NCBI GenBank assembly: GCA_013054445.1
Contig: JAAMPI010000107.1
Span: 1 to 64,000, forward strand
Origin: Cudoniella acicularis
Taxonomy: Eukaryota > Ascomycota > Leotiomycetes > Helotiales > Helotiaceae
Direction of reading: 5' to 3'
Length of the DNA: 64,000 nucleotides
Below are positions 26,415-57,722 of this stretch, piece by piece. The notes below the pieces were generated by a model. The model worked only from the letters and a program-made list of their open reading frames with translations. It searched no databases and was not told where the DNA came from. The position numbers and the translations under genes were made by a program. Within the stretch, counting starts at the first letter, position 1, and the number at the start of each line of letters is the position of its first letter.

Positions 26415-26762
26415 TGTTGTATTATTAGGTAATAAGCACTATTCTAGGCTTAAGGTTTAAACCTTACTAGAATCTTCTGGGTTGTTCTTTGATTTATAAG
26501 CGTTGATTTATAAGCGTTGATTTCTAAGTTATAGAAGCTTCTAGTAACTACACTTGTAGTATATATAGTCCGCTCACCCCTTTGTAGATAAATAAGTCTT
26601 TAAGTCAAATTCATATTATTATTCTATATACTTGAATCACTCTCGACCTAACAGTCGACTCTTCTTCCGCTATCCACACCTTAGCCGCCTACCGACGACT
26701 ATATAGATATATCTTCTATATACTATATACCGCGTACTACGGTTATACCCTTACCTCCAACA
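26415..26762. mobile_element. Solo LTR, copy A (348 bp)
   Basis: It starts tgttgtattattaggtaa and ends ttacctccaaca. It is highly similar to 37259-37536 in the same orientation, but carries about 70 extra bases before the 3' end. It has internal tandem units of tttgatttataagcg and the palindrome aaggtttaaacctt. There is no target duplication (atgtt / tcaat). Coding sequence of two different receptor genes abuts its two sides. Confidence 0.85.
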
Positions 26763-29704: not shown

Positions 29705-30697
29705 GAGCTCGTATTACACAAAGCATTCGTGTGGGCATGTCTGGCGGGTGGGTAGAGGGCATTTGGGGATTTTAAATCATATTGTTACATGAATCAAGGT
29801 AGAAACATTGGAAGATTTATAAACTCAGATACTATAAGAGTGCGTTCTCTCTTGTTACAATATAGTTTGCTTGCCATAGCAATTTGATTTCTGTGATCAT
29901 ATATATTAACTTTGGACGCAATTCACTCCAAATGACAAAGCCGTACCCTTTATATCGCTGGCTATAAGTTGACGAGATGAAAGGAACTTGGGGCAAGCCT
30001 AGGGCTGAGATAGATAAGGAGGACGGGCCAGAGTCTTGGAGGAGAAAAATATTCTCAGGTTGAATTGTAACTCAATTCTAATACAGTCCGAAACAATCTT
30101 CCTTGGAAACACGATCAATTAGATACATAGGCCAGGTATGATCTCTCAACGTGTTTGAATATTGAAGGAGCTCACTGATGCGCACCTTATAAATCTATTC
30201 CTTACAATCTAAAGGTCCACGACAGTTGTTTACGCCTTTAATCTGGCTCAGTTAAATTTGGGAAAGACAAACGATTCTTAATTAATTTCAGCTTACTGGC
30301 ACATGAATAGATGTACAGACATGTGGTAACCTCGGCAAGATAAGCTAGATTCCCCAGCTCAATTATCCGAGTAACAGGTTGATTTATTTGCCAGATATGT
30401 GCTTCACAAAGAGGACTAGGATAATAGATTCTTGACTGTCACCTCGTTGATTTCCTATTGTTGATTCTTACATCACAGGCCAGGCGACTTGATCGTTTGC
30501 CGAGTTTGGGGTGGGGCCTTTCATTTGCATGAAAATATGGGGCGAACGCCACGCAAGGTTCCAACAACCCTGTGAGGCGGATGACCGCAGCCTGCGTATG
30601 TTTTCATCCACAACATCTTCAACTTGCACACCTTCGACGCAGGCTCCCTAGTCTAGTGGGCGTCGCGCCATCAAGAGGCGGAAATGTAGTCCGACTA
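29705..30697. other. Intergenic region
   Basis: No gene is seen. Contains the acetyltransferase 3' region and AT-rich spacer; ends at the foldback element. Confidence 0.5.
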
Positions 30698-30833
30698 GGC
30701 TGCGTGATGGGTAGTGGGTAATACCCATTACCCGCGGGCTACCCACTACGGGTACTACCCACCCGCGGGTGGGTAGTACCCGTGGTGGGTAGCCCGCGGG
30801 TAATGGGTACTACCCACTACCCATCACGCAGCC
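30698..30833. mobile_element. 136-bp near-perfect foldback element with TA duplication
   Basis: The two 68-bp arms are reverse complements with only 2 mismatches and no loop; the centre is acccgc|gggt at 30765/30766. Both ends read ggctgcgtgatgggtagt inward and are flanked by TA (30696-30697, 30834-30835). The arms are built from repeated GGGTA/TACCC words. This fits a foldback MITE of a TA-targeting (Tc1/mariner-like) family. Confidence 0.85.
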
Positions 30834-30896
30834 TAATAATGCGTAAACAAGCTTGATTAGCTGTACACTTGTCTACTCTCACCTTCTCTCTGCGAC

Positions 30897-35924: not shown

Positions 35925-37215
35925 ATGAGCGAGTCAACCCCATCGGATATTATCAACCCCGCCGGCATCCAAGGTCCATCACCGAGGGCGGCCAAAGATC
36001 GGGTTGAGAATGGAAATATAGACCCTGCAGAGGCTTCGGGAGTAGCAGAACGCAGAAGGCTGCAAAACCGAATCGCACAGAGAAACCATAGTAAGAATCA
36101 ACTTGGTCTATTGGTGGCTGCAAATATTAATCATGATCGCAGGGAGAAAAGTCCGCGAGCATATCTCTGCTCTTGAAGCAAAGCTTGTTGATAATATGCT
36201 TATGGGATATGGGCTCACCAACATTCAAACGCCATCTTCGCTGGCTAGCCAAGATATTAATTTTACGATAAAATCGCCATCTCCCCAAGAAAACACCCTA
36301 TACGAGTCTCCTCAGTCGATCACGTCTCCGCTGGGAGATCATTTGAGCCAGCCAACGGACCACATGCTTGATTTTCCAATCGATCTCACGGAGGAAATAA
36401 ACCAAGTATATGCCCCTTCATCTGCGCCTCAACCTTGGCAGCCTATGTCAGATTCCACAACTCCTGACGCATATTCTCTTGGACCATTTTCCATGACAAC
36501 AAACAAATCAAAGTGTCATTGTTGTAGTACATACCCCAAGACCCAAAATTGGTGGACCCATGACGGTATGGACGAGTCTCTCAACGGGTTTTCTTTGGGA
36601 ACACCATCCCCTCTGAATAATCCAGCTGGTCTCCGACAGTTCTCGGTCCATTAATTCATGAACAAGGAGGTGATTACAATGCAAATCCCAAGTCGCTTAC
36701 TGTCAGAGATTCACGTCAAAATCTAGCACCGGTGCAACAAATACTTCACACACACCAGCGATCTGGGAATGAAGGACCTTTTTCTACGGCTCAACCCGTT
36801 CAGCATGCGCAGCCATGTTGTCAATCGCACCCACGTGCTTCTCAGCAATCTCCTTTTACATCCACAGATCACAGAATTGTCACCATTCCAAACGCAATTT
36901 CTTGTAAGTATAAACTTAGATTCAAAGCTCTATACAAGGACTTTGTTCAAAGCGTAGGACTTGTATGAGGCTGGTTCAACTATAACTGACATCTTAGTAG
37001 CGACTCATCACATCCACCATACCACAAACGAAACCAACAGATTGCAACAATCAAACTTCAGCATGGTTCCTGGTTCTGCAGTAAGAAATCCTAATGTGTA
37101 TCAGCCGCAAACCTACGTCCTTGTCCCAATATCCGAACCGTATTCTCAACCAAGCCCCTTGCACGACCCCCATCACCAATACTTATCATACCCATACCAC
37201 AGCTTTCAAAAATAG
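35925..37215 (+). CDS. bZIP transcription factor at the cluster edge
   Basis: Four exons (35925-36090, 36143-36565, 36640-36903, 36998-37215) join in frame to 356 residues. The first junction completes the basic region RRRLQNRIAQRNHRRKVRE (43-61), with the N-x3-Q-R core of fungal bZIP proteins. The leucine zipper after it is short (HISALEAKL). The rest is Ser/Pro/Gln/His-rich, with a CHCC cysteine cluster. Without the second intron (donor gtatgg, acceptor ctccgacag) a stop at 36652 would truncate the protein. It is the nearest regulator to the isocyanide synthase and the likely pathway-specific activator; the xanthocillin cluster of Aspergillus fumigatus also has a bZIP regulator (XanC). A solo LTR begins 43 bp after its stop. 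Confidence 0.82.
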
Positions 37216-37258
37216 GTGATAAATACTGGATAGAAGTTCTGTGATTGCTATTCAATTA

Positions 37259-37536
37259 TGTTGCATTATTAGGTAATAAGCACTATTCTAAGCTTAAGGT
37301 TTAAACCTTAGTAGAATCTTCTAGGTTGTTCTTTGATTTATAAGCTTTGATTTATAAGCGTTGATTTCTAAGCTATAGAAGCTTCTAGTAACTACACTTA
37401 TAGTATATATAGTCCGCTCACCCCTTTGTAGATAGATAAGTCTTTAAGTCAAAATCATATTATTATTCCATATACTTGAATCTCTCTCGACCTAACAGTC
37501 GACTCTTCTTCCGCCTACACACCTTTACCTCCAACA
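37259..37536. mobile_element. Solo LTR, copy B (278 bp)
   Basis: It starts tgttgcattattaggtaa and ends ttacctccaaca, same family and orientation as 26415-26762. Flanks aatta and gatta form a 5-bp duplication with one mismatch. It sits between the bZIP gene and the 3' end of the isocyanide synthase gene. Confidence 0.85.
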
Positions 37537-37810
37537 GATTATAGATATTCTCTCAAAATATACAATAATATCGCTACTTATATCCTGTGGAAAATGTGTT
37601 CCGAGTCAATTGATTTCACATTTACATTATTCAATTTATCTCATCCAAAGTTCCTGAGGTGCAAATATCTATTTGTTATTGAGTAGCTAGCACAAACTTT
37701 CACCTATGAGAGAGCTTTCCAATTCAGATGAAACAATAATGAGAGACCGGAAATCCAAATACACATTTAGCTACCTGTTATACCCTTCGCTAACACTCTT
37801 CAATGACTCG

Positions 37811-40033
37811 TTAATCGAAATGAATTCTCCACAGCTCCCTAGCACAATTGCTTGTATATCCTGTTCTTGTATGCAACATCGAGGTGTTATCACTGACTAC
37901 CCAGTCTCCGACATTCCAAGAGAATCTCAAGCAAACCCGATAGTCATACAACAACTCTGTAATGACATCCACAATTTCTTGATCATCATTGCTCAGGGTA
38001 ACTTTGCATGTGGAGAATTTTGTCTTGGTCTCGTCCCATGGTTCGTGCCAGCGAATGCAGGGTTCGTTCGTAACCGGATGACGAACAATCAGAGGCAAGT
38101 CTTTCAGCTTTGCGTCCCAGAATCCATCATTGTCCATATTCCATTTGATCTTTTCGAACCGTTCGAGGTTATATGGGGCTCTTAAGTATTGAAAGAACAG
38201 ACGAGCAGAGGCAAAGAGCGTGTATCCGGTGCCTTCAGGAGCTGTAGCAAGGGCAGTAAAAAACTGATAACCTGGTGGTGCCTGGACATTGGTAATTTCG
38301 CCAGTCGTTGGATCAGTTTTCTCTTCAAATTTAAACATGCCATCGAAATGCATAGGCATCCCTTCATTTGAAGTAACATTGTTCCCCATTTTGGTATTGA
38401 CGCCAGCGTCCTTAACCTTCTGAATAATTCCGAAGGTCCAAGGGAGGATTTTCCCCGCCTCATGTGCCTTCTCTGTGTATAATGCCTCATCGAGAGTCTC
38501 AGAGAAGCCTCGAAGGACAATTGGTGACATATCAATTGACAGCTGTTGGATTTTCTTCATGGGAACGTCACGAACCGATGGATGGCCGTTTGTGGGACGA
38601 ATGACAAGGCCGCATGGATATAAATGTTCGAACTCGACCTTTAGATCGCCCCAGTTGTACAACTCGGATTTCTCTCGGAAATAATATGGCCGTCCATCAC
38701 GATAAATGAGATCGTGAGTTGAGTGGAAATCCTCGCTGTGACCAGTAGTAAAAGAACCATCTAATCCAACTGCAATGCTTGAGTGCCATGGTGTTTGGCC
38801 GAAATTTCCAGATTTTTGAGCGATCAATTGTACGGGGAATTTGGTGACAGCAGTTGTGGGGTGAATAGAAAGCCGAACATAATCTCCATGGGTTTTCTGG
38901 ATGGCGGCTGCAAACGCGGCACCGCGGCTGATCATGGCTTGAGCAATGGCTTCGATAACTTTGGCATGTTTGTTCGCACTGAGGGGTGATCCATCTTGAC
39001 CAAGTTTCAACTCTTCCATGTTTTGAAGATCTTTTTTAAGAAACCGGAGATAACCTCGGTAAGTAAGGCAAGTGTCTTTATTGTCCTTGATTGCTTTCTT
39101 TGCGTCAAAACCAAATGGTGTAAATCGAGCGACGAGTTCTCTTCTTTGGCAGGATGCATGTGTAAGATAGGTGGCTCGATCGTGTTCCGAATTCTTGAAA
39201 TGAGCAGAATGGATCAAGGCAATTGGGTTGTGGTGAGAAATATCGCCGTCGAGTAAGTCAGATAATCTCATAAATTTGATATTGGCATGTTTTTTCTCCC
39301 GAGCCATTTGTCGCAAGGCCTCGCCATACGACCAAACATCGTCGTCGCTGACTCTGAGCAGATCTAATATGCAATTCAGTTATAATTCTACACATTTGAA
39401 GCGAAGAATAGACTTACCGTTATATACAAGACCATCAGAGGCGATAGTTATTTCTCCACCATGCTGATAAACTTGCCTAATGCTATCGCAAAGGCCTTGC
39501 AAGCAAGCAAGGGCAATTTCTTCCCCCAGATCCGGGAGTGCCCCTAACACTTTTCCTTTGCGGTTGGGGGACTTGAATGGAAATGCGGGAAGGATCATTT
39601 GAATTGGAACACCATTGTTGATTCGCTCCAGGATGGTAGGGAGGAAGGTTGCCCTTGCCTTGCACGGCTCTGATTGATTGGATTTCTCACTGATTCCGTA
39701 TGACTCAATGATATCGAGGATCTTACTTCCAACAGCAAGGTGTTCGGGGTTTGCAGGCTTACTGACTGGAGCCACGAGTGTTTCCGTGCTTGATGTCGAT
39801 GTTTTCTGGTCTTGGACGGCAACATCCTTGGCATTTCTTCCTGAGCTGAGTTTGGGATGCGAAAGAGCTTGAGTCCAAGCCTCAAAGGTCCAGTCCTCCA
39901 GGGCTTGAACTCGTGCAATCAAGGCGTCAATTTTGCCAGCATCGCTCAAGTACCCGAGTGGAGATGCCCCCGGGTTCACTTTCGGGGTTTCGAAATTGAG
40001 CGCCGAAAGAGATGGATAAACTGATGTAGACAT
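37811..40033 (-). CDS. Isocyanide synthase (DIT1/PvcA) - TauD dioxygenase fusion
   Basis: Two exons (40033-39418, 39363-37811) give 722 residues. Residues about 110-465 form a DIT1/PvcA domain: ERINNGVPIQMILPAFPFKS, GALPDLGEEIALACLQGL, ITIASDGLVYNDLL across the intron, HGDYVRLSIHPT and a terminal FEHLYPCGLVIRP. Residues about 480-722 form a TauD-type Fe(II)/2-oxoglutarate dioxygenase. HFD (His544, Asp546) and a distal His703 are the likely iron ligands, and RELWRIHF carries the 2-oxoglutarate-binding arginine. In characterised systems the first domain converts an amino acid (often Tyr or Trp) with ribulose-5-phosphate to an isocyanide, and the dioxygenase decarboxylates and desaturates it. 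Both active sites look intact. No signal peptide. It is the core gene of the cluster at 35.9-49.4 kb. Confidence 0.92.
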
Positions 40034-40973
40034 AGTAATAGATGCTGAAAGTCTTGAGCGGTTTGCTTGTTGTGGGAATTTCAAGTCTATCCCACTTCAC
40101 ACTTATAAGTTATTTGAACACTGAGGAACTTCACTATACACCTTCTACTGAACTTTCAGCCTCATGACATATCCAACACATACCTTTGGGGTGGCAAGAG
40201 CAGCTGATAGTAAAACAAAGCCATTTAGTCACACAAGTAACACCAATTTCAGGCTTTTAGTCATATCACGACAAGTTGAAGCTCTTTTCGACCCCATCGA
40301 ATGATGTCTCATCTAAATGAGGCTAGCGTGTACAGATAGCTAACTATGTTAATTAATAACAGTAGATATTTAAGCCAATCGCATTCTATTGAAATAGCAA
40401 TAACTTTCTACGAGAAAAGGTTAGATATTACAATTCATAGCCCAAAAACTTAAATTTCTATCACGTAAAATTATCCAAGTGCTATATGAGAGCCTTAACT
40501 ACAATTATCCAGTCATAATGTGCAGCACTATGACCTAGAAAATAATAATACTGTCTAAATTTTACACGACAGACGGAAATATGGGCGTAATAGAGAAAAT
40601 GCTGACAGTTCTGACAGTATTGCACCGCCACCGCCATAATGTCATTTTCAGTATTAATTTAGTCATTGAGGATTAAAACATTCAACACAAATTTCATTCA
40701 GCTCTTTAGCGAACTGGAAAGGGGAAGCGGCCCGGAATGCTGACGGAGTGAAAGCCACGCGGTGCCCTTGCAGTCATGCTGCTGCACGACCTGTCATCAC
40801 TCCGACGCTGTGCAAACACACAGATGCTTAGTACTCGGAGATTCCGGGATTATCTGTGCACTTTCAGCTCCCAAGACATCTAAGGTAACGAAGTTTGAAT
40901 AGCGAGCCCTCCTTAAAAGGCACTTGGAATTTGTCTGTCTCGGGAACACTAATTCAACTCTAGCAACTTGTTC
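40034..40973. promoter_or_regulatory. Divergent promoter, isocyanide synthase / O-methyltransferase
   Basis: 940 bp between two divergent start codons. No gene is seen. Candidate for shared control by the cluster bZIP factor; I did not find an obvious TGACTCA-type palindrome by eye. Confidence 0.45.
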
Positions 40974-42583
40974 ATGCCAATACCGAAGATTATTTCTAAC
41001 AGTACAATGAACGGCAATTTGCACAAACTTCCAAAAGGAGGTGACTTGCGCCAACTTGTCAGCTTCCTGGGCGAACGCGTGGAGACTTATCTAAGTCGTG
41101 TTGAAGCTATAGGAGCATCTCCACCAAATTTAACAGAGCCTTTTCCCGATCCAATAAAGGATGATGAGGCATTAACTGCTAAACTCGAGATTCTAAGGGC
41201 CTGTGAAAGGACAATGGCTCTGGTTCTTGGCCCTGTGGAGTGGATGATGTTTCAATGCATGGCATTCGTGGATCCGGCTTGCATTTCTGCAATGATGGAG
41301 TTGGGCATCCACGAGGCCATTGCACCTGGTTCAAACCCCACTTCACTCAGTGAATTAGTTGAGAAGACAGGAGCGTCAAAAGATGTTCTAAGTTAGTCCC
41401 GATATTTGCCAATATTTTTCGTCACTAATTTACTGGCGCATTTAGTGAGAATCATGCGTGTCTGCACACAGCGACTTTGTTTTGAAGAAGTCTCACCTGG
41501 AAATTTTGTACACAACGGGGTTTCCCTTCTATTTCTTGCACCTCCAATATGTTCTCTCGTAGGGCACTGGTGAGTATAATTCATCTTATGAAGTGATACC
41601 AATACTGATCAGATATTTAGCTGTGACGACGGGTTGCGATCAGCTGGCCAACTCACAACCTCACTTCGTGAGAACAAATTTCAAGTCAGCAACGATCCTG
41701 CACAGTGTGCATTTAGCAAGGCTTTTGGAAGTAAGCCAGGCCTTCAATGTGTTTTCGTTTTCTTCAGGTGCTGATTCCGACCTGTAGCAAATAAGGGCCT
41801 CTTCGATTACTACTACAGCGACGATCATGAGAGAGGCCAACGCTTTGGTCTCGGGATGGCCGGGTCTGAGATAATTAAAGCTCTGACTGAGGATATATTT
41901 CCCTTCGAGACACTTCCAAAAAATGCTAAGATTATTGATGTTGGTGGTGGTAGAGGTCAAGTCAGTGTCCGAATTGCAGAGAAGATGCAGGGGATGACAT
42001 TCGTTATCCAAGACGAAGAACTCATACTGGAAGCAGGAAAAGACTGCGGGATTCCGGAGGAAGTAATTGACCGGGTGGATTTCATGCCCCATGACTTTTT
42101 CAAGCCACAGCCAGTAAAAGGCGCAGATGTTTACCTTTTTCGGTTCATCTTTCACGACCATCCGGATAGGTAAGGCCTCCTGAATTTTTATTCACGTATG
42201 TCTTTCCGTCTACTGACTTGAGCCTCTTCTAGTAATTGCATCAAAATCCTGTCCCAGATTATCGATGCAATGGACCCAGACAAGTCACGCATCCTAATTG
42301 ACGATGCAGTGGTACCAGAAGTACTCGGTGATGAAAGTTTGCGCATCTTCAACTTCCTAGATATGTATGTACCTGAGTCTCGACCAAAGTTCGAAACAGC
42401 GCATTTACTAAAGTATACAGATATATGATGATGATTCTAAATGCCAAGGAGCGAACAGAACCGCAATGGCGCGAGTTGTTTGCCCTTGTGAGTGAGCGAT
42501 TGGTGTTGGAAAAAATTTGGAGAGAGCCTGGCGGTGGTCCACAGGGAGGATCTGTGCTCGAGTTGAGGTTGCGAAAAGATTAG
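40974..42583 (+). CDS. SAM-dependent O-methyltransferase (plant/fungal family 2)
   Basis: Six exons (40974-41391, 41446-41569, 41621-41730, 41788-42169, 42233-42364, 42421-42583) join in frame to 442 residues; a start at Met12 (41007) would give 431. Seen: a helical dimerisation domain with VGHCCDDGLRSAGQLT, the SAM-binding motif KIIDVGGGRGQVSV, a following acidic strand FVIQDEE, and FIFHDHPDRSN, whose histidine is the usual catalytic base. Family members methylate phenols. In this cluster the likely role is capping a tyrosine-derived phenol, as XanE does for xanthocillin; this is inference from context. It diverges from the isocyanide synthase. Confidence 0.88.
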
Positions 42584-43287
42584 AGACTCTCTTCTTTGTA
42601 ATTTAGAAGGAGCATAAATATAGAATTTGGATCCTGTAACGGTTCAAAAATACTTGAATTTATTTGTTTAATTTTTGGAAGCAAATTTTCATGCTCTTTG
42701 GCATACTGTGGTCTGCTGTAATTAGCGACCATGCGCCGAGTTCCAAGGACATACGGGGATATTTGGGTAATCATGCGCTGAAAATTAGAGGGGGCGTGTG
42801 CTCTAAAATTGCTAAGGACATGCTGAAGGTCGCTAAAGTAATCGCGCCAGCAGAGCTTAAACCGGGTCCATTCAGTGCACTTCCTTGGGCAACGACTCAA
42901 AGAACAAGAATTCTGCTCTCATGGTATACTATCGGAAGGCTATCTCCTGAAATCACCTTAGTATGCCTTCTTGATCAGCTATTTAAATATTGTTTTGAAT
43001 TTGGAGGGCTGTGCGTATTCTCGATTCGGTAGGCAAGCCGGTAAACCACTGAATTGTTACGCCCAGGTAGAAGGTTCACTAAAAGTGGGCGGCCTACCCT
43101 ACATACTGTAGCACTTCACAAAACTATCTCCTGCAGCTCTGGAAACAACACGTTAATATTCACGATAATCAAACACAAATGCTAAGTGTTACAGAAGATG
43201 GCAATTTTGATGTTAAACATCTAGGGCGAAATATCTAGTGACGAAGTGTGCATCCATTTTCTAATCAATCCTCAACTCTCCTGAAAA
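42584..43287. other. Convergent intergenic region in the cluster
   Basis: Long open frames exist on both strands (42664-43032 plus, 42580-42900 minus), but neither shows a family motif. I treat the stretch as 3' regions of the methyltransferase and P450. Confidence 0.45.
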
Positions 43288-44943
43288 CTACTTTGCAACC
43301 AATAGGTGCAAGAATTCCCCCCTACAAAAGGTTAGCTGAAATGCTACAGTTGTCAATCCGGTTTGGAGACTTACAGGTGTGAGTTTCAAGGTATAATCTT
43401 GATGAATGGTCCATTTAACCTTTCTCAACAACACAAACAACATAATTTTCATCTCCAGCAGTGCAAAGCCTTGTCCAAGACACTTCCTGGTATGTGCATT
43501 GAAAGGGATATATGTTCCACGGACTGTCTCTTTCCTGAATTTTGCCTGCATTTCATCTACGGTAGTACCCCATCGCTCTGGAATAAATTCTTGCGCGGTA
43601 GGCCCCCATATATTCTTGTCGATTTGGACTCCGTATGCATTCCATCCTACCCAAGTGCGTGCAGGAATATGAATATCGCCCCCAAGAACGGCGGGCTGAA
43701 GCGTGACTCGATTTATCAGCTGTGAGACTGGTGGGTATAATCTTAGGAGTTCGAAAATGGTGGCGGTGAGATATGGCATGCGATTTACAACTTCTGTGGT
43801 TGGGGTGTCTGTTTCCACACCCAATATCTCTGTCCGAAGCCGATTTTGAACCTCCTGGTGTGAAGTTAGCAGAAGTAAGGACACTATATCCCTGACCTGG
43901 CTCACCAAGTTCTTTCCAAGTTCCCAGAATGTGCTGTTCATCAGTTGTTGAACATTCTCGTGCGCTGTCAAAAATGTGATTTTTAGGTTCGCACGGAACT
44001 GTGTGTCGTTGATTTTGCCAACATCTAATGCTTCTTCTAGGAGTTGAGCAACTTGCTTATTTTTAATCTTTTCCGTAGCCTGCCTTTCCTTCCGTGGGTT
44101 TGTCAAGACAATGTTGTAGAGTTTGTCCTCGAATTCCTTCATAATGACAAAGGCTCTTCGACGTGAAGTAAAAATATTTGGATATTTGTCTAAGACTGGA
44201 AAGTTGAAGTATAGAGGCTGAAAGAGGGTCTTCTTGATTATTGTCTGCAGTTCTTCAACTCGTACATGAGATTTCTCAAGACACTAGAAAATATTATAAC
44301 TGGTCAATGCATGCAAATCGTGAAAGTGATGTGGTAGACTCACCTGGAAATCGTAATCGAGAAAGCTTTCTCCCATCACATCGATTGCCCACTTTTGAAC
44401 ATCGCTGTTGACTGCAACACCTCCTTCATGGCCAAGATCGTTGCATTTAGCTACGCGTTGCTTTTCCAAGAGGATGTCTACCAACCTTTCCGACTTTCGC
44501 ACCATGGGGTTTGTGTCGAAGTCTCTCTTCTGCATCCCTGGTTTCATTATTTGTGTATATAACTTCCAGTTTTCGCCATGTGTGTTGATGATGTTGTCGC
44601 CTACTAGAGACGCAATAACAGACCAAGGAATCTTCACTTGGCTCCCTGCCTTCGCATACAAATCTTCGTTGCGAAATATCTCAGTGAGGTACCGAGGACG
44701 AGCGACAAGTATACTCCAGCGACCCGCAAACCAAATAAGTACAGCTCCATGTTTCTCAAGAGGTTTCCGTAGCCAACGTTCATAAATCTCATCTTGGCCC
44801 ATATCATTCCATAAGCTGATCAGAGAAACGTAGACAGGAATGAGTGGGAGGTGACGAGGAAGATCCCCCGGAATGTGGAAATAATACCAAAGTAAGACGC
44901 CGAAGAAAAAGAATCCAAGTAATATAGTCAAGATAATTGTCAT
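43288..44943 (-). CDS. DIT2-like cytochrome P450 of the isocyanide cluster
   Basis: Exons 44943-44344 and 44283-43288 give 531 residues. A possible 39-nt in-frame intron near the end (donor gtaagt, acceptor catttcag, about 43372-43334) would shorten it to 518. N-terminal membrane anchor at 3-22. The HGAVLIWFAGRWSILVARP block is typical of CYP56/DIT2-like P450s. The I-helix has AHENV and the K-helix ELLR. The heme loop reads FNAHTRKCLG, with His where most P450s have Gly in FxxGxRxCxG. Yeast DIT2 couples N-formyltyrosine radicals, and the xanthocillin P450 (XanG) is proposed to join two tyrosine isocyanides. Phenolic coupling or related oxidation is therefore the likely role. Confidence 0.88.
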
Positions 44944-45404
44944 GCTCGCGGCGAATTGGTGAATTTTGAAGAAGAGAGATTTTTGACTTCGAAAAAAGAG
45001 TAATTTCTAGGAGGAAGTCATAATTCGAAGATTGCATCCAGAAGGTCTGGGTGAGCGAGTAAACCTCGCCTCAAGTATCATTCTCTAATGACCAATGAAT
45101 TTTCCATCTCCAGTGACCACCAATACTACGATTATGTTACAGTCCAAAACTTATTTGGTGTTGACAAGATTACAGTCAGCCCTCTAATGTGGCGTCTAAG
45201 CCATTATGCATCTCATGTCAGGCACCGAAACCACCTCAGAAGCCACCTTGCAGGGGCCTAACCAACTTCTCAACAATCATTCAATGAAACCGTTGTGGAA
45301 CACTTATTAACATCCTCAAACCTGCATAGAATATTTTAAATTGTCATCTTGGGAATTCTGCAATCATTACCAGAAAGACACATTTGGATCTTAAAGAAAA
45401 CGAC
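44944..45404. promoter_or_regulatory. Divergent promoter, P450 / hemerythrin-like gene
   Basis: 461 bp between two divergent start codons inside the cluster. No gene is seen. Confidence 0.45.
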
Positions 45405-46230
45405 ATGGCTACAACAATGACCCATCAGGCAACACCTGCCGCCCTGCCAGAGAAGGAAGAGAAGACAGAGACTCAAAGCCTGAGTATGCACAAAGACAGT
45501 TTATCGGCAAATACTCTTGATCTCAAAGATCAACATGGTATGTTTAATCCTTGCCAAATGGGCATTTCCATCTCCTGCCTTTCATAATTTCAAAACTGAT
45601 GCGCAAAAAACAGTCTCTGCTGCTCTTGGCCTATTTGCCATCCACAATGTACTCCGTCGAACCCTTTTTGCCTGCGCTCAACACGCAAAGAATGTCTCGG
45701 CTTCAAACACTATCCCATTTATCTGCTACTCTAGCTACACCTTGAATTTACTCAAAGAGCAACTGCAGTCCGTTGACACTGTATGGTTCCCGAAGTTTTC
45801 GGAATACGATGGCAGGTTCCGGGAGCAGATCAGGGCACACGAACCAATTGTGGCAATGGTCACTGAGCTCGAAGAACTCCTTGAACCTCAAAACCTGGTG
45901 AAAAAGGCGGTATTGATTTCCGAAAAGTTTGAGGAGATTCATAAGAGAGTGAATTTGGAATTCGATATCGAGGAAATATTGTCAAATGAATTGGGACACC
46001 GTGTGCCTATGGATGAAATCAGGGGTATGGAGAAGAATCAGGAGGAACGCCGTGCTGCACAAGTGAAGATTTATGGTCATCTCTGGTCAGCTGTCTATCT
46101 TTTGAGGGCACTGTCACCTAAGGAGAGAGCGATATTTCCTCCAGGAATCCCCAAGGTCGTGATGAGTGGAATGTTGACCGCAGGTGCACTCCAATTCCGG
46201 AAGTACTTCAATCCCTCTTTTCCTCTTTGA
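45405..46230 (+). CDS. Helical protein with weak hemerythrin-like pattern, in the isocyanide cluster
   Basis: Two exons (45405-45537, 45614-46230) give 249 residues. After a polar, Thr/Glu/Lys-rich N-terminus the protein is almost wholly helical: GLFAIHNVLRRTLFACAQH, FICYSSYTLNLLKEQLQS, VDTVWFPKFSEYD, REQIRAHEPIVAMVTELEELL. The order H-N-x-L-R-R, then an amphipathic helix before WFP, then EQI-x-x-H-E resembles HHE/hemerythrin-like fungal proteins. However, the middle histidines and the Glu before the aromatic-Phe-Pro motif are replaced (Y/T and V), so a full di-iron site is unlikely. Its place between P450 and transporter genes suggests a pathway or self-protection role. I do not recognise a precise family. 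Confidence 0.75.
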
Positions 46231-47303
46231 TTGGCCCTTACTAAACATTATGTAGGGAATTGCAATTCTCTCCGAAATTTTGAGAACTCGAACACGTATT
46301 ATCCCGGGATTCTCAACTACTTTGATTTATTCTCTTCGTATAATATCAGATAATATCTTTCAATGGGTAGTGATCTTTTGGAGCACTAATTGTGTTCGGG
46401 GGAAATCACTGGGTACTAGAGTTTCTGATAAAGAAATGAAAACATACTTCTCAAATTTGAAAGAAAAAAACCTACCTGAATTTGAAATCTTAATTTCGCA
46501 AAATTTTTTGATGGTCGTGCCCTTGCCCCTGCTCGTAGAATTGTACTTATCTCAAGCGGGGCGAGATCTCGCCTGTTTGGAGTTGTATCATACCTTCTAA
46601 ACAGTTCTAAATTCCACTTTGATCTCTAGTAGTCGAACGCAAATTCATTGAAAAAATTGTCTTGTGCCCAGCTATCCTCGATTTCCTCACCCTTCACAAC
46701 ACTTGGCTTGGGGCTGTTTTTCTCATTGCTGAAGCTTTTGACACGTGATAGTGGAGTAAGAAAGGGAGGGGAAAAGGGGGGGGGTTACTGGTGTGACTAT
46801 ACGGACGTAAAACAATAGAATGTTTAAGAATTCTAGTCACGGCAACTTTAAGCAAGGGCCATGCCCGCCCAGACTTAGATGTGCTCACAGGCTGTAAGGG
46901 AGAGCAGTGGCTGTCGTGACACACCACAACTATTGCACTTGTGTTACCAGTCGCGAGAAACCGTGGCGGCATGACTGTTGGCAATCGGCGCTGACGTTTC
47001 CCACCGCCACCCACAGTTGGATCGACCTATAAGTGTTAAGGTGCCGAATTACAAGGCATTTTTGGATGTTATTTGTCGTATCCTCAGCGCCTCAGAACGC
47101 CATGTTATGCAGGTGTGGTCAGCAATCGCCGATCGGATATAGCTGAATCGGATATAGGGACATGGCCAGATCAAAGCATGTAATAAGACATCATTTCGAA
47201 CATGTAACTAAGTATAGATAAAAGGAATGTTTGGTTTGATTTTTAAACCAAAAGCTTCCAGAACAACAACAGCTCAGCACGCTGAGAACCACCTTCGCTC
47301 ACA
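46231..47303. other. Intergenic region upstream of the MFS gene
   Basis: No supported gene. Contains a G-rich run near 46776-46785 and AT-rich spacer. The last 200 bp are presumably the transporter promoter. Confidence 0.45.
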
Positions 47304-49429
47304 ATGTCGTCACAGGACAGTGAAGTAAAGAATGGGATAAATGACGATACAGTTCATGTGAATGAAGCTGAGTACGAGGATGTAGATTTCATACAGGAAG
47401 ATGTTCAATCAGGAGTGTCGAAGCCTCTGGTAAGAGATTCCCTGCACTCGATATATTTTTAGAGGGGACCGCTGATCATTTTCTCCTACCTACAGTGGGT
47501 TCTTATTGTAGCAACAATTATGTCTTCGACTTTCCTTTTCTCATTAGATAATACGATCATCGCGGACGTGCAGCCAAAAATCGTGGAAGTTCTCGGAGAC
47601 GTTGGCAAGCTGAGCTGGCTCGGTGTTGCTTTTGTTCTCGCAAGTTCCTCCACTCTCATCACTTGGTACCAAAATTCAAATCCAAAGGGATATGCAAATC
47701 TTGAAACTGACTTTAACTGTATTTAGGGCTAAATTGTACGGAATCTTCAGTGCAAAATGGCTCTACATTGGATCAGTCATTTTATTCGAGGGTGGCAGCG
47801 CTCTTTGTGGAGGTGCACCAACAATGAATGCTATGATTGTTGGTCGAGCAATAGCTGGCTTGGGAGTATTAAACCGATTCCTATGACTAAAGATAGCTGC
47901 TGACACTCGTAGGGTGCCGGAATGTACATTGGTTGTCTCACTCTTCTCAGTCTCACAACATCTGTCCGTCAAAGGCCAAATTATATGGCTTTCGTTGGTT
48001 TGAGTAAGTTGATTTCTTCGAGTCAGGGAGTAATACTGACCATCAACCATAGCTTGGGGTTCAGGAACTGTTCTGGGGCCTGTTGTTGGAGGCGCGTTCT
48101 CCGAAAACGCAAAGACTACAGTACGCTTCATCAACCATCTTTGCGAAGTCACTCAACTAATAAAAAAATTAGTGGCGATGGGCTTTCTATATAAATCTTT
48201 GTATAGGTGCTGCTTTTGCCCCTATCTACTTTTGGTTTCTTCCTAGAGGAGATCCCCAGAAGACCATCCCTTTCGCTGCGAAATTCAAACAACTCGATTA
48301 TCTGGGAATTGCTCTTAACATTGGTGCATTCACTGCGCTCATCATGGCAATTAATTTCGGAGGAAATCTCTATGCCTGGAACGACGGGCGAGAGATTGCA
48401 TTGTGGACTGTCGGTGGTTTTCTCCTCCTTCTCTTCGGTCTGCAGCAAGCTTTCAAGATTGGAACAACTTTCGAGCAAAGAATATTTCCGGCAGATTTTT
48501 TGAGGATGAAGATTATGTGGGTTTTGTTTGCGCTTATGAACGCTGCAGCTACCTGTGTTTTTGTAAATGAAAGTCCCATGTTTTTGATTTCTGCTAATAC
48601 TCTCAGATTCCAACATTTTACATACCCCTTTTCTTTCAGTTCGTTCGTGGAGATCCTCCATTAACTGCCGCCGTGCGGCTTCTCCCATTCATTTGTCTAA
48701 TGGTCTTCTTCGGTTTACTTAACGGCGCGTTAATGAGCAATTTTGGTTATTGTAAGATATTATCTTAGGTTATGTTTAATTATTTCACTACTGACATCTA
48801 GCAGATATGCCATGGTACCTACTTGGTGGAATTTTCACTACAATTGGCGGTGCTCTGATGTGTATGTTCATGGGATCCGTGTATGCAAACGCTAACGAAT
48901 TCCAGATACCGTCACCGAAGCATCCTCAAACAGTCAATTGTACGGCTATTCTATCATAATCGGAATTGGGGCCGGCATGTTTATCCAGACCTCCTTCTCA
49001 GTTGCCCAAGCAAAAGTATCAAAAGACAGGGCTTCAGACGCTGCCGGCTACATTGCCCTCGCTCAAAACCTGGGAATCGTCCTTTCTCTTGCCATTTCAG
49101 GCTCAATCTTCCAAAACAAAGCTTTAGATGGTTTGCAATCTATTCTCCCAAATGTGCCTACGGAAGCATTGCGTGGTGTCATCACTGGATCTGGTAGTGC
49201 TTTGTTCAATAACCTTCCCCTGGAAACCAAGGCTCAGGTTCTTGATGCGATCCTCAAGGCTATGTCTTACACCTACGTTCTTGTGATTGTTGCTGGCTCA
49301 ATGGCAATTATTGGCTCACTGTTTATGAAGGTGGGTTCTCTCAAACTTGAATAAGCAATAAAAATTTCTGATACTGACCTCCACATTTAGTTAGAGAGAA
49401 TCTTCGTCACGGGAGCAGTAGCTATGTGA
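47304..49429 (+). CDS. MFS transporter, 14-TM drug/metabolite efflux type
   Basis: Ten exons (47304-47429, 47496-47665, 47727-47865, 47913-48003, 48053-48120, 48173-48562, 48607-48751, 48805-48861, 48906-49330, 49391-49429) join in frame to 549 residues. After a polar N-terminus come FLFSLDNTIIADVQP (TM1, the D-x-T-I-V-type motif of DHA2), VGRAIAGLG, WGSGTVLGPVVGGAF (motif C) and WRWAFYINLCIG, then further membrane helices to the end. This is the plasma-membrane drug:H+ antiporter family typical of fungal secondary-metabolite clusters. It is the last gene of the isocyanide cluster and probably exports the product, giving self-protection. Confidence 0.92.
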
Positions 49430-51344: not shown

Positions 51345-51665
51345 GTCCTCTTCGTTCAAACCTTTTATTTCCACAGACCTCTTATTTCTCCTAACCTTGT
51401 ATTTCTGCAGACCGCTTAATTATACTAACCTTCCCTTTCTACAAACCTTAATCCTGCCTACTACTTATTCCTGCGCATCTCTTATTCCTGCCCACCTCTG
51501 ATTTCTGCACATCCTTATTTCTGCAAACCTCTTATTCCTGCCCACCTCCTATTTGTGCCCACCCTTACTCCTGCAAATTGCCTAACCTAATTCCTACTAA
51601 CCTCTTATTCCAACTTGCTTCTTATTCCTACTCGCTTATTATTCCTACGCGCTTCTATTCTAGCA
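51345..51665 (+). repeat. Degenerate minisatellite, about 18-20-nt unit
   Basis: At least fifteen imperfect head-to-tail copies of a unit close to cttattcctgcccacct. The T-rich start and the C-rich end of each unit are conserved and the middle varies. No coding function is seen. Confidence 0.7.
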
Positions 51666-52815
51666 ACCTAGAGACCTATCCGGGGGCTATCCTGTGTTTA
51701 GGAGAAAGTTCATAGGAGATATACTCTCCTAGGAAGCAACCATTCCTAGGAGCATTCTCCTATAAGAAACAAACTCCTCGGAAATAGTTCCTAAGAGGCC
51801 GGTCTCCTTTGGGCCTTCTCCCTTGCGCTATCTTCTCCCCAGAACACTCTCCTAGGAAATACTCCCTCCTCGGCATGGTAATCTCCCCGAAGCCGTTTTC
51901 TAGGCCTCTGGAAATCATATGACGAGTGTGAGGACGAGGCAATGACAGCTCCGTCTTTGGAGAGACACGGCTATGGTATTGACAGGTTCACCACATTTTC
52001 ATAGACCTCATGTATGATATACCGATAAGATTTAGCTATATGCTATGTCTTTATCTACTTTAGCCTCTTAAGAAGTTGTGATTTTTAGGTCATTTTATGT
52101 TATAGTGCAGTATAGGGGCCAAGTTTGGACCCGCGATCCCTCTAAATCTTAGTCGAAGGATTGACTGCACCGCGGGGCCTGAATCGTCCCCTTTTGAAAC
52201 AAAAGATAGGGAGCCAGATTTGAACCTATAATTCTAAGAATAGACTTAGCGCGGTTTAGTCGTTCTTTATGATATGCCAGAGTTTCTTATTTCTTGGACT
52301 GACAAACAATTGCGCAGTTCTTAGACGGCGTGAGTGGCTGGACGGCGGGACGATATAAGTCGATAGACGACATAGTATAAGTCTAACTACGATCTTGCTT
52401 ATTTCCTTTACCTTGCTTGCCTACTTCTAACTTTTTCCGGAGTATGGTAGACTTATTCTGTTCTAGTCATGTCCGTAGTATAAATCTAATTACTATAAAG
52501 ACGGAAGTTTGAGACTAAATATAGTTTATAGGGTACGCTAGCCAGAACTATTCCTAATTAGGCAGAAACGTCGTTGATAAATAAGGAAGACGCTTGCTAG
52601 CTCACGTGACATCGGTTAGCTAACGAGTACTCTTAGAATTTCAAGCTATTCGAGTCAAAAACGAGTGTATTCCATTAAGGAGAAGATGACTACTGTACAG
52701 GAAGAGCTTCTAGAGCCTATAATTATGGGCGTGGCACCAGGCCAAAGCGTACCCTGAAACGGGTCTGCGACCCAAACCGCAACAAGTACTAGTTAGCTCA
52801 TGTAACATCACTCTA
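51666..52815. other. Non-coding region with tcctaggag palindromes
   Basis: Between 51710 and 51860 the words ctcctagga and tcctataag recur in both orientations. From 52080 on the sequence is mixed, with two tRNA T-arm-like fragments that do not fold as tRNAs. No gene supported. Confidence 0.4.
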
Positions 52816-55231: not shown

Positions 55232-56200
55232 CTAACCTTCCTCACGCCGCCATGGAGGGTTGGCAGAAGGATCTGCTCCAATAACATAGAGAAGCCCTTT
55301 AGTATATGCAGAGGCTGTGGCAGCAGCGTAGCGATGCCACACGTCATTTTTATGAGAATCGGCATAGTCACATATCCCTCGTATGACGGCCACAGGCAAT
55401 GTGTTCATGAGGCCGGCTGCTTCCATCTCAAAGCAAATTATCTTGTACTTGTCTCTCAACTCGTCCCGAAGCTTCGCATTCTTTATAAGCTTATCTCCCG
55501 ACGCGATAAGGCCGTAATGAACAACCGGATCCTCAGAGTCTCGAAGATCGCGCGCTATCAACCTGTATGTGTTGTCTACTAGGCCGCCTGTCTTTTCCGC
55601 TTCGTACAGTTGATCGTTCTCTACGCCTGGATACAGGAATTTCTGACCATTAGGCCGAGCACTGAAAGCGTCAAGATACTGTAGGAAGCTGTGAGAGCCG
55701 TTGAATTCTGCCTCCGTTTGAATCGTCTCAAACGCATTTCGCAAGCGTCGATCCGTTGGGTATAGCCAACCTTTCCTGACAAAGCCATCCACAGTCTCCT
55801 TCCCAAATTCGTAACCTATGACCCCTTGTACATCATCGGAACCATCTCCTGGTGTACCGACCACTACATCACCAAGGCGGATATCAGGTTCCAAGTGTCG
55901 TCCAGGCACTCCAGCCCCAATGCCTACCATTAAACCGTACCGAAGATTCGGAAAGCTTTGTCTCATCTGGGCAACAAGGCTGGCTGCAGAGACAGTGCCG
56001 GTTGATTTCCTTGGCAAGCCAACTACAATAACATTGTGACCACCAATAGTGCCTGGTATGTAGTCGTTGTCGTCACCATGCCTCCCAGGAAATACGCCGT
56101 TATGTTTTTCATCTAACATGAATCTAGCAGCAAGTAACTCAACTTGGAGCGCACATATCCACCCTATTGTATAATCTTCGTATCGGAGTGTAGAAGACAT
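55232..56200 (-). CDS. Nucleoside phosphorylase-domain protein (PNP_UDP, NLR-sensor type)
   Basis: One exon, 322 residues, starting MSSTLRYEDYTIGWICAL. Motifs follow the fungal PNP_UDP family: TIGWICALQVELLAARFMLD, GLMVGIGAGVPG (phosphate-binding loop), DIRLGDVVVG, CFEMEAAGLMN (ribose/base site) and RGICDYADSHKNDVWHRYAAATASAY. In filamentous fungi this domain usually forms the N-terminus of NACHT or ankyrin NLR-like proteins linked to non-self recognition, where it may act on nucleotides. Here it ends in WRREEG with a stop, with no NACHT domain visible downstream. A donor-like gttagt overlaps the stop, so splicing to downstream exons is possible, but I found no in-frame acceptor. Confidence 0.82.
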   Translation of the reverse strand: MSSTLRYEDYTIGWICALQVELLAARFMLDEKHNGVFPGRHGDDNDYIPGTIGGHNVIVVGLPRKSTGTVSAASLVAQMRQSFPNLRYGLMVGIGAGVPGRHLEPDIRLGDVVVGTPGDGSDDVQGVIGYEFGKETVDGFVRKGWLYPTDRRLRNAFETIQTEAEFNGSHSFLQYLDAFSARPNGQKFLYPGVENDQLYEAEKTGGLVDNTYRLIARDLRDSEDPVVHYGLIASGDKLIKNAKLRDELRDKYKIICFEMEAAGLMNTLPVAVIRGICDYADSHKNDVWHRYAAATASAYTKGLLYVIGADPSANPPWRREEG

Positions 56201-57722
56201 AGCGTGCAAGTGATACGACGGGGGATTTGCATGTGAAGCAATCGCAACGACTAGGAGGAACGCTGCATAACTCGAATCGTTGGAATTTGGGCGATGGGGT
56301 TATGGGGCGATGAAGAACGGCTTGCTACGTGAGAAACGACGTTCGCGACAGTGACGTAACAGCGACTTTAGCTCGGGCTACAGGTATTTGAATGACAGGC
56401 AGTTATGGTGAACGAAAGGAGGACGAAGAGAGCTGCGTAACGAAGTATCACGATACTGTCTGGAGAGGCGATGAAATTTCAAGAGTAATAGTTCAGCATT
56501 ATGATTATGATCCCAAGTTCACCCGGCTCTAAACCTAAAGGGCACTAGCACTGTACTCGATTTCCCGGTTAAGTTCCCGCTTATATAACCAAACCTACCA
56601 CCTACTTTAAAAATCAATAATTAAATAACTATATAAGATAATAATTTACTATTAAAGATATAAAGAGATCAAAGATTAATATATGAGAATATATAATTTT
56701 TAAATACCTTGTTTAAAGATATATAGTGTTTTTATTACCCGGCCTGTCTTCGTATGTTTTTCCGGCTCCGTAGACCCCCTCTTATCAACACTAACACTAA
56801 CAAATTGTATTATCTTCTTTTTATAAACAGGTGTCTTTCTAGACTTTATAAGAGACCTAGCTTATATAATAGTATCGTTTAAAGATTTTTTTAGCTTAAG
56901 CCTTCTTCTTTTTTTCAAGCCTACTTTTTAGTCTTTTCTTAGGCCTTAATCTCGTCTTTATTAGCCTGTTAAGCTAAGGTCTTATCTACCTTCTCTATGT
57001 CCTTCTTCGTCTTTTTAATCATAGTAATAACTTTCTTTAAGTCTATTCAAGCTCTTTCTTATCCCTCTTTCTTTTCTTTTCTACTTAGATAGCTTATATA
57101 GCCTTTACTTAAGATATACTAAATAGCTATAGGCTATTATCCTTCTTACTAAATAGATTAAGCTTTTTCTTATAAGTATAACACCGTTTTTTAAGCTTTA
57201 AAGACTTAATTGGCCCTTCCTTTATATATTATTATTAATCTTACGCCGATCTAGCTTATTATTATACGGGATTACTATATATGTTCTAACCCTAGGAAAA
57301 CTAGTAACTAGAAGAAAAACCTAGGTACTGCCTATTAACTCTAGTCTTTTAGTTTTCTATTATCGATTATTATCCTTTTTTATTATATTTTAAAGGCTAT
57401 CTAGTTATAAAGAAGTTCTCTCGCTAGAAAGAATTAGCCTAGTTAACTAGACTATATTATCTATTATATCGCTTATTAGACCCTCTTAATAGTATTTAAG
57501 AGGCTGTTTATATCTAGTCTTCTATTTGTCTTTAATAAGTATCTATAATATCTTTTATATTTATAATAGGCTAGAATATATCTTATTATCTCTTTATCTT
57601 CTATATATTTATAAAGCCTTATTATATATTCTAGGACTCTTAGTCGTCTAAATATATTATTAAGTCCTATAACTCTTATATAAAACTAGATTACTATTAA
57701 GCTTTTAGCTTTATAAAGGTTA
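56201..57722. other. Promoter then RIP-degraded repeat
   Basis: About 350 bp of normal-composition upstream DNA, then from about 56570 extremely TA-rich, stop-filled sequence typical of RIP. Lysine-rich minus-strand fragments are visible but I cannot identify the element. Confidence 0.45.

What the first reader, a model, noticed from the sequence alone, without database searches (positions are those of the whole stretch)
35925..49429. Intact isocyanide biosynthetic gene cluster of xanthocillin-like composition
In 13.5 kb the window carries a bZIP factor, an isocyanide synthase-dioxygenase fusion, an O-methyltransferase, a DIT2-like P450, a helical unknown and a 14-TM MFS exporter. No lesion was found in any of them, and three gene pairs are divergent or convergent as in co-regulated clusters. 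The A. fumigatus xan cluster has the same core types (from memory: ICS, bZIP, methyltransferase, P450). The set, order and helical partner here may define a new variant with a different product.
Basis: partly seen in the sequence, partly recalled or inferred. Interest (0 to 1): 0.9.

Follow-up and report, generated by a model that had tools for sequence, protein, structure and literature searches.

The report
Fungal isocyanide gene cluster, xanthocillin-like
Six neighbouring, apparently intact fungal genes look like a small pathway that makes and exports a xanthocillin-type isocyanide (a metal-binding, antibiotic-like compound); the kind of pathway is already known, but this one carries an unusual, probably hemerythrin-like partner protein and its own exporter.

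Summary
Hand-spliced models give six open genes at 35925-49354: bZIP factor, isocyanide synthase-TauD fusion, O-methyltransferase, P450, a small helical protein and an MFS pump. The synthase matches PF05141 at 7.6e-88 and TauD at 2.1e-21; it is the only PF05141 locus found in this 53-Mb assembly.

The TauD domain keeps the metal ligands and both residues that a published rule links to vinyl-isonitrile formation (K550, H645). The methyltransferase keeps the His taken as catalytic (role recalled). A xanthocillin-type, O-methylated product is the best guess.

"DIT2-like" is untested.

New here: the "helical unknown" is probably a diverged hemerythrin-like protein that lost part of its metal ligands (weak scores).

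Verdict: a real but rather ordinary isocyanide cluster, a new member of a known kind; organism unidentified.

The parts
35925..37215 (+). bZIP transcription factor, 356 aa; exons 35925-36090, 36143-36565, 36640-36903, 36998-37215; Pap1-type basic region NRIAQRNHR with a short, imperfect zipper (L66, N73, L80, then S87)
   Evidence: Model; Pfam bZIP_1 0.0038, below cut-off; Pap1 at E 0.047 in PDB; zipper register
37811..40033 (-). Isocyanide synthase-TauD fusion, 722 aa; exons 40033-39418 and 39363-37811
   Evidence: PF05141 7.6e-88 at 136-422 and TauD 2.1e-21 at 559-719; only PF05141 locus found in the assembly; keeps 35 of 45 ICS columns (79 bacterial sequences) and 25 of 34 TauD columns (74 sequences) conserved at 95% or more
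40974..42583 (+). Class-II type O-methyltransferase, 442 aa, 6 exons; SAM motif DVGGGRG (from 268) and His in FHDHPD (from 339)
   Evidence: Methyltransf_2 4.6e-23 and Dimerisation 6.3e-10; best PDB relatives LepI 6e-33, OxaC 5.9e-31; positions
43288..44943 (-). Cytochrome P450, 531 aa; exons 44943-44344, 44283-43288; ExxR, PERW and heme Cys present; I-helix TAHENV lacks the usual Thr; heme loop FNAHTRKCLG has His for the usual Gly
   Evidence: PF00067 9.3e-46; no close paralogue among 61 other matches in the assembly, best-scoring 34% over 177 aa; motif positions and small survey
45405..46230 (+). Small helical protein, 249 aa, probably a diverged hemerythrin-like protein; exons 45405-45537, 45614-46230
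   Evidence: no hemerythrin match in Pfam at E<=1; best of 5002 sequences against an HMM of three own-genome hemerythrin-like proteins; among 2218 ORFs only ORFs of the four hemerythrin loci score higher
47304..49354 (+). MFS exporter, DHA2-type, 544 aa, 9 exons
   Evidence: MFS_1 5.4e-38; EfpA 4.3e-16, EmrB 2.6e-9 in PDB
37259..37536 (+). Dispersed repeat (TGTTG...CAACA ends, possibly a solo LTR) between the 3' ends of bZIP and ICS; interrupts none of the six genes
   Evidence: 39 other copies scored at 90-98% identity, 40 being the number scored of 172 first-look candidates; second copy at 26415-26695

Best explanation
It is a small isocyanide biosynthetic gene cluster of xanthocillin-like logic. 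The ICS domain turns the amino group of an aromatic amino acid, most likely tyrosine, into an isocyanide using a carbon of ribulose-5-phosphate; the fused Fe/2-oxoglutarate TauD domain then removes the carboxylate and desaturates to give a vinyl isonitrile; the P450 couples two such units oxidatively; the O-methyltransferase caps one or both phenols; the DHA2-type MFS pump exports the product; the bZIP protein is the local switch; the hemerythrin-like protein is an accessory of unknown role. Shown here: gene content, open frames, families, retained catalytic residues. Inferred: substrate, coupling step, methylation site, export and regulation.
For: PF05141 and TauD in one chain, as in XanB (PMC5974471). 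In the alignment to PIsnB (7TCL) metal ligands H101, D103, H250 and the carboxylate anchors R265, W74 correspond to H544, D546, H703, R718, W514, and the two residues that forecast vinyl isonitrile (K/R at 107, N/H at 188; PMC9467999 section 12) are K550 and H645. TauD scores better to PIsnB (9.7e-21) than to PvcB (7.6e-13). Methyltransferase with SAM motif and His fits a phenolic product. P450 I-helix TAHENV lacks Thr: of six other P450 loci of this genome that I looked at (of 61 other matches), five show AG-x-[DE]-TT and in one my pattern found none; loss of that Thr is recalled from phenol-coupling P450s such as OxyB (not looked up; one search gave nothing usable).
Against: None of 74 bacterial TauD relatives has His at the 188 position and 47 of 74 fit neither residue pair, so H645 rests on the paper's wording alone; single swaps at these positions did not change the product in PIsnB-Ah. 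In the MAFFT alignment K550 fell in a gap column; it was placed by counting six residues from H544 and by the pairwise alignment. No AfXanC site AGTCAGCA in any of the four promoter stretches. No isocyanide hydratase found on the contig. The ICS domain lost 10 of 45 bacteria-conserved columns and TauD 9 of 34, including W102 of PIsnB, here F545; no fungal set was available to tell clade drift from altered activity. Tyrosine as substrate was not tested. No shared promoter word beyond chance.
Confidence: 0.6

Rival explanations
1. A real isocyanide cluster whose product is not xanthocillin-like: the vinyl isonitrile monomer is methylated and then epoxidised, hydroxylated or otherwise modified by the P450 without dimerisation.
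For: The P450 could not be tied to XanG or Dit2; heme loop FNAHTRKCLG and I-helix TAHENV are unusual, and no close paralogue was found in the assembly. ICS clusters are diverse (200 families, PMC10153163).
Against: The gene types match core xan functions (ICS-DOX, P450, methyltransferase, bZIP); Thr loss in the I-helix fits coupling better than hydroxylation (recalled).
Confidence: 0.3
2. Several genes are bystanders: only ICS, P450 and perhaps OMT form the pathway; the MFS, hemerythrin-like and bZIP genes are neighbours.
For: No shared promoter motif above chance: one 8-mer in 4 of 4 promoters, a result reached by 120 of 2000 random sets, and one copy of the longer 9-mer lies inside a dispersed repeat. 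MacA-type site in 1 of 4 promoters.
Against: Six genes packed in 13.4 kb with four head-to-head or tail-to-tail pairs. The nearest recognisable pieces in the flanking ORFs scanned are a sub-threshold kinase match at about 31.1 kb and a GNAT at about 29.2-29.6 kb upstream, and a PNP_UDP_1 ORF at 55.2-56.3 kb downstream (38 distinct ORFs scanned). MFS and P450 genes are the commonest ICS cluster members.
Confidence: 0.25
3. A decayed, silent cluster.
For: A dispersed repeat sits between bZIP and ICS; zipper is short; part of the conserved ICS and TauD columns is changed.
Against: All six frames are open with GT-AG introns; metal ligands and anchors are kept; XanC proteins are reported to lack the typical zipper leucines anyway (PMC8406171).
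Confidence: 0.08

Closest known systems
xan cluster of Aspergillus fumigatus (xanA-G; PMC5974471, PMC8406171)
   Same: ICS-dioxygenase fusion, bZIP regulator without a full zipper, P450, methylation gene(s)
   Different: Here no isocyanide hydratase (XanA) found on the contig, one methyltransferase instead of two methylating proteins (XanE, XanF), an MFS pump (xan has no predicted transporter), a probable hemerythrin-like protein, no AGTCAGCA promoter sites; sequence identity to xan proteins not measured; what XanD is was not learned
Bacterial IsnA/IsnB (Photorhabdus PIsnB, 7TCL)
   Same: Same two domains; PIsnB-type K and N/H positions, ligands kept
   Different: ICS and TauD are separate ORFs in 73 of 80 bacterial loci, fused in 1 (L063), and in 6 no TauD ORF was found in the stretch held; ICS domain identity 26-32% in 79 loci
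dit1/dit2 superfamily (PMC10153163, PMC5974471)
   Same: ICS plus P450
   Different: yeast Dit1 is a single-domain ICS transcribed divergently from dit2; here the ICS carries TauD, an OMT gene lies between ICS and P450, and both are on the minus strand
Fungal hemerythrin-like proteins (PF01814)
   Same: Motif order: HN in helix A, WFP after helix B, His in helix C
   Different: HEHHDNEE of helix B (as in L012) is replaced by KEQLQSVD; below Pfam detection

Membership tests
Two-domain isocyanide synthase-dioxygenase (ICS-TauD) | PF05141 domain | tested here: met
   7.6e-88, positions 3-270 of 273
Two-domain isocyanide synthase-dioxygenase (ICS-TauD) | C-terminal TauD (PF02668) with HxD...H and Arg | tested here: met
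   2.1e-21; H544, D546, H703, R718 aligned to PIsnB and 74 bacterial relatives
PIsnB-type (vinyl isonitrile) dioxygenase | K/R at 107 and N/H at 188 of PIsnB | tested here: met
   K550, H645; of 74 bacterial relatives 23 have K/R with N, 4 have L with C, 47 neither, none H at 188
xan gene cluster family | bZIP factor XanC with AGTCAGCA sites in target promoters | tested here: not met
   bZIP present, but 1 site in 64 kb, inside the OMT gene at 41684; 0 in promoters. The site is also absent in A. nidulans xan genes (PMC8406171)
xan gene cluster family | Isocyanide hydratase XanA (DJ-1/PfpI) | tested here: not met
   11 PF01965 matches in the assembly, none on contig C80
xan gene cluster family | P450 orthologous to XanG | not testable with these tools
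   P450 present; no XanG sequence available; protein database off, so no such search was made for the P450
xan gene cluster family | Methyltransferase(s) XanE/XanF | tested here: inconclusive
   One Methyltransf_2 protein; family of XanE/XanF not stated in the texts read
dit superfamily | dit1 and dit2 neighbours in the yeast (divergent) orientation | tested here: not met
   OMT lies between ICS and P450, both on minus strand; Dit2 orthology itself not testable
Hemerythrin-like (PF01814) | Pfam match over cut-off | tested here: not met
   Absent at E<=1; none of the 4 PF01814 matches in the assembly lies on C80
Hemerythrin-like (PF01814) | Homology to fungal members | tested here: inconclusive
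   For: 12.3 bits, best of 5002 (5000 shuffles, best 9.1, and the reverse); 12.1 bits and E 0.012 among 2218 ORFs, next unrelated 4.7. Against: hhalign probability only 21%; reciprocal search E 0.42 and 0.68
Hemerythrin-like (PF01814) | Full HHE metal-ligand set | tested here: not met
   Helix B H/E lost; His of helix A (H55) and helix C (H120) kept; a helix D His (H154) is not aligned to one

The most novel reading that the evidence does not exclude
A hemerythrin-fold protein with a remodelled, probably non-diiron site has been recruited into an isocyanide pathway, where it binds the copper-isocyanide complex or shields the cell from free isocyanide, taking the place of the missing hydratase and handing product to the MFS pump.
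Probability: 0.1. Interest if true: 0.6.

Novelty: new member of a known kind. Interest (0 to 1): 0.3.

Why it matters
ICS clusters such as xan were missed by standard cluster prediction (PMC5974471) and their products bind copper and act on microbes; an intact cluster with a predicted vinyl-isonitrile output, its own exporter and an odd, probably hemerythrin-like partner is a concrete target for product discovery. If the partner protein handles isocyanide or copper, it would be a new self-protection route beside isocyanide hydratase. As it stands, the kind of cluster is well known.

Tried and rejected
Promoter co-regulation: AfXanC motif absent from promoters (1929 sites genome-wide). Enumerated words: ACACTTAT in 4 of 4 promoters, but 120 of 2000 random segment sets share at least as many 8-mers, and one copy of ACACTTATA (37394) lies in the dispersed repeat; rejected as evidence. 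Copper motifs: TGTGCTCA (MacA; PMC6514546, passage) once in the promoters, upstream of MFS (3 in the window); recalled yeast Mac1-like pattern once (9 in the window) and recalled Ace1-like core twice (43 in the window); too few to mean anything.

Structure of the helical protein: single-sequence AlphaFold model of exon 2 had mean pLDDT 42.9, so no fold search was run. PDB sequence search gave one chance hit at 0.36. The own-genome hemerythrin loci came from the genome search, which is not among the sources the structure tool lists, so I did not hand them in.

Species: no 5.8S rRNA found; organism unnamed. Viral collection: no relative. ICS tree: no fungal reference sequences available, so the cluster family (xan, GCF 6, 7 or other) was not assigned. 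Literature: no held paper joins 'isocyanide synthase' and 'hemerythrin'; a broader search gave 5 papers, listing only seen. P450-coupling search gave nothing usable; the OxyB remark is recalled.

Pfam on flanking ORFs: held 40 entries, 38 distinct ORFs, 37 of them among the 152 flanking ORFs of at least 75 aa listed; small or split genes could be missed.
Full report
Setting. The window is part of contig C80 (66,524 bases) of a 53.2-Mb assembly in 1,836 contigs. Short introns and the gene set point to a filamentous fungus (inference); the species could not be named (no 5.8S rRNA found).

Observation. I rebuilt each gene by hand from GT-AG introns that keep the frame and the family pattern; there are 19 introns. 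All six proteins are open from ATG to stop. Order and strand: bZIP (+), ICS-TauD (-), O-methyltransferase (+), P450 (-), helical protein (+), MFS (+), from 35925 to 49354. Pfam supports four genes over cut-off: PF05141 7.6e-88 and TauD 2.1e-21 in one chain, Methyltransf_2 4.6e-23, p450 9.3e-46, MFS_1 5.4e-38; bZIP_1 is sub-threshold at 0.0038 and the helical protein has no credible match. PF05141 was found at one locus only in the assembly.

Isocyanide synthase. A scan of prokaryote genomes with the conserved N-terminal stretch gave 177 relatives, of which the best 80 loci were kept. Over the whole domain 79 of them are 26-32% identical to the window protein; ICS and TauD are separate ORFs in 73 of 80 loci, one of 80 (L063) is a fusion, and in 6 no TauD ORF was found in the stretch held. 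Of 45 ICS columns conserved in at least 95% of 79 bacterial sequences, 35 are kept, including L148-P152, K154-P156, D200-G201, S371-P374 and T396-H399; 10 are changed. The fused L063 was left out of the ICS alignment (79 of 80) and the six loci without TauD out of the TauD alignment (74 of 80).

TauD domain and product type. In PIsnB (7TCL) the metal is held by H101, D103, H250 and the substrate carboxylate by R265 with W74 (PMC9467999, section 7, and passages). The window has H544, D546, H703, R718, W514 at these places. The same paper links K/R at 107 and N/H at 188 to vinyl isonitrile, and L and C to isocyanoacrylate (section 12). The window has K550 and H645. Among 74 bacterial relatives, 23 have K/R with N, 4 have L with C, 47 fit neither, and none has His at 188. 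The rule therefore points to a vinyl isonitrile, as proposed for XanB, but its authors found that single swaps do not change the product.

Tailoring and export. The methyltransferase's best PDB relatives are LepI and OxaC; where LepI has RD at the aligned place, it has HD (alignment; the catalytic role of that His is recalled). This fits methylation of a phenol. The P450 has ExxR, PERW and the heme Cys, but TAHENV in the I-helix and His for Gly in the heme loop. Of six other P450 loci of this genome that I looked at, five show AG-x-[DE]-TT, and the four where my pattern found a heme loop have Gly. No close paralogue was found. I read this as a coupling rather than a hydroxylating P450; that is inference. 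The pump matches EfpA and EmrB.

The helical protein. It has no credible Pfam, PDB or own-genome relative by direct search. Its motif order suggested hemerythrin to me. An HMM of three hemerythrin-like proteins of the same genome scores it 12.3 bits, above all 5000 shuffles (best 9.1) and its reverse. Among 2218 ORFs, seven ORFs score above it, all from the four hemerythrin loci L012-L015, and the next unrelated ORF has 4.7 bits (12.1 bits, E 0.012 here). Against this: hhalign gives only 21% probability, and in the reciprocal search L012 and L015 rank first and third among non-self ORFs but at E 0.42 and 0.68. The helix-B HEHHDNEE of L012 is replaced by KEQLQSVD; H55 and H120 remain. So: probably a diverged hemerythrin-like protein without a normal diiron site; about 0.7 by my judgement, since I chose the family after looking.

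Regulation. AGTCAGCA, the AfXanC site (PMC8406171, section 8), is absent from all four promoter stretches. A shared 8-mer did not beat random segments, and copper motifs were too few. Co-regulation thus rests on layout alone. The bZIP has a short zipper; XanC proteins are reported to lack the typical zipper leucines.

Surroundings. In 38 distinct flanking ORFs scanned against Pfam the matches were an NSUN2-type methyltransferase, two P450 genes in parts (8.9 kb; 23.5-24.6 kb), a kinase (14.4-15.6 kb), weak coiled-coil matches, a fungal rhodopsin-domain piece (27.0-27.4 kb), a GNAT piece (29.2-29.6 kb), a sub-threshold kinase piece (31.1-31.4 kb), a PNP_UDP_1 ORF (55.2-56.3 kb), two weak zinc-ribbon or DUF matches (54.4-54.7 kb) and a transposase piece (58.7 kb). 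None is an evident seventh cluster gene, though the P450 at 23.5-24.6 kb lies 11 kb from the bZIP.

Comparison. A. fumigatus xan has hydratase XanA, ICS-DOX XanB, bZIP XanC, XanD, methylation proteins XanE and XanF, and P450 XanG, with no predicted transporter (PMC5974471 Results; PMC8406171 section 5; order in PMC13068945, passage). The window shares four functions, has no hydratase found on the contig, and adds a pump and the hemerythrin-like protein. MFS genes occur in about 60% and hydratases in about 21% of fungal ICS clusters (PMC10153163), so these differences are not remarkable. I file it as an ICS cluster with xanthocillin-like logic, not as a xan family member.

Papers seen: PMC5974471 (abstract, Results section, passages); PMC10153163 (abstract, section 16 parts 1-3 of 4, figure legends); PMC8406171 (abstract, sections 5, 8, 9); PMC9467999 (abstract, sections 7, 12, passages); PMC10342363, PMC11051388, PMC11898546, PMC13068945, PMC6514546 (passages only); all others in the listings were seen as listings.

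Noticed in passing
37259-37536 and 26415-26695: Dispersed repeat of about 280 bp with TGTTG...CAACA ends (possibly solo LTR); 39 other copies scored in the assembly at 90-98% identity (40 scored of 172 candidates); the first lies between bZIP and ICS.
   Followed up: partly
30696-30835: Two 70-nt arms, 97% complementary with no spacer: a long near-perfect palindrome.
   Followed up: no
51347-51670: Degenerate minisatellite of about 17-bp units downstream of the cluster.
   Followed up: no
8885-9298 and 23476-24623: Parts of two further P450 genes outside the cluster.
   Followed up: no
10986-13403: Long ORF (806 aa) with weak coiled-coil family matches and tandem duplications of 138 and 105 bp inside it.
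   Followed up: no
58666-58893: Fragment matching the DDE_Tnp_1_7 transposase family, just under the cut-off (22.1 against 22.4 bits).
   Followed up: no
55235-56299: Open 355-aa PNP_UDP_1 (phosphorylase superfamily) frame, the nearest well-matched gene downstream in the ORFs scanned.
   Followed up: no
L034-L113, TauD genes: 47 of 74 bacterial TauD partners fit neither the PIsnB nor the PvcB residue pair (mostly A/V/I with A); a third product class may exist.
   Followed up: no
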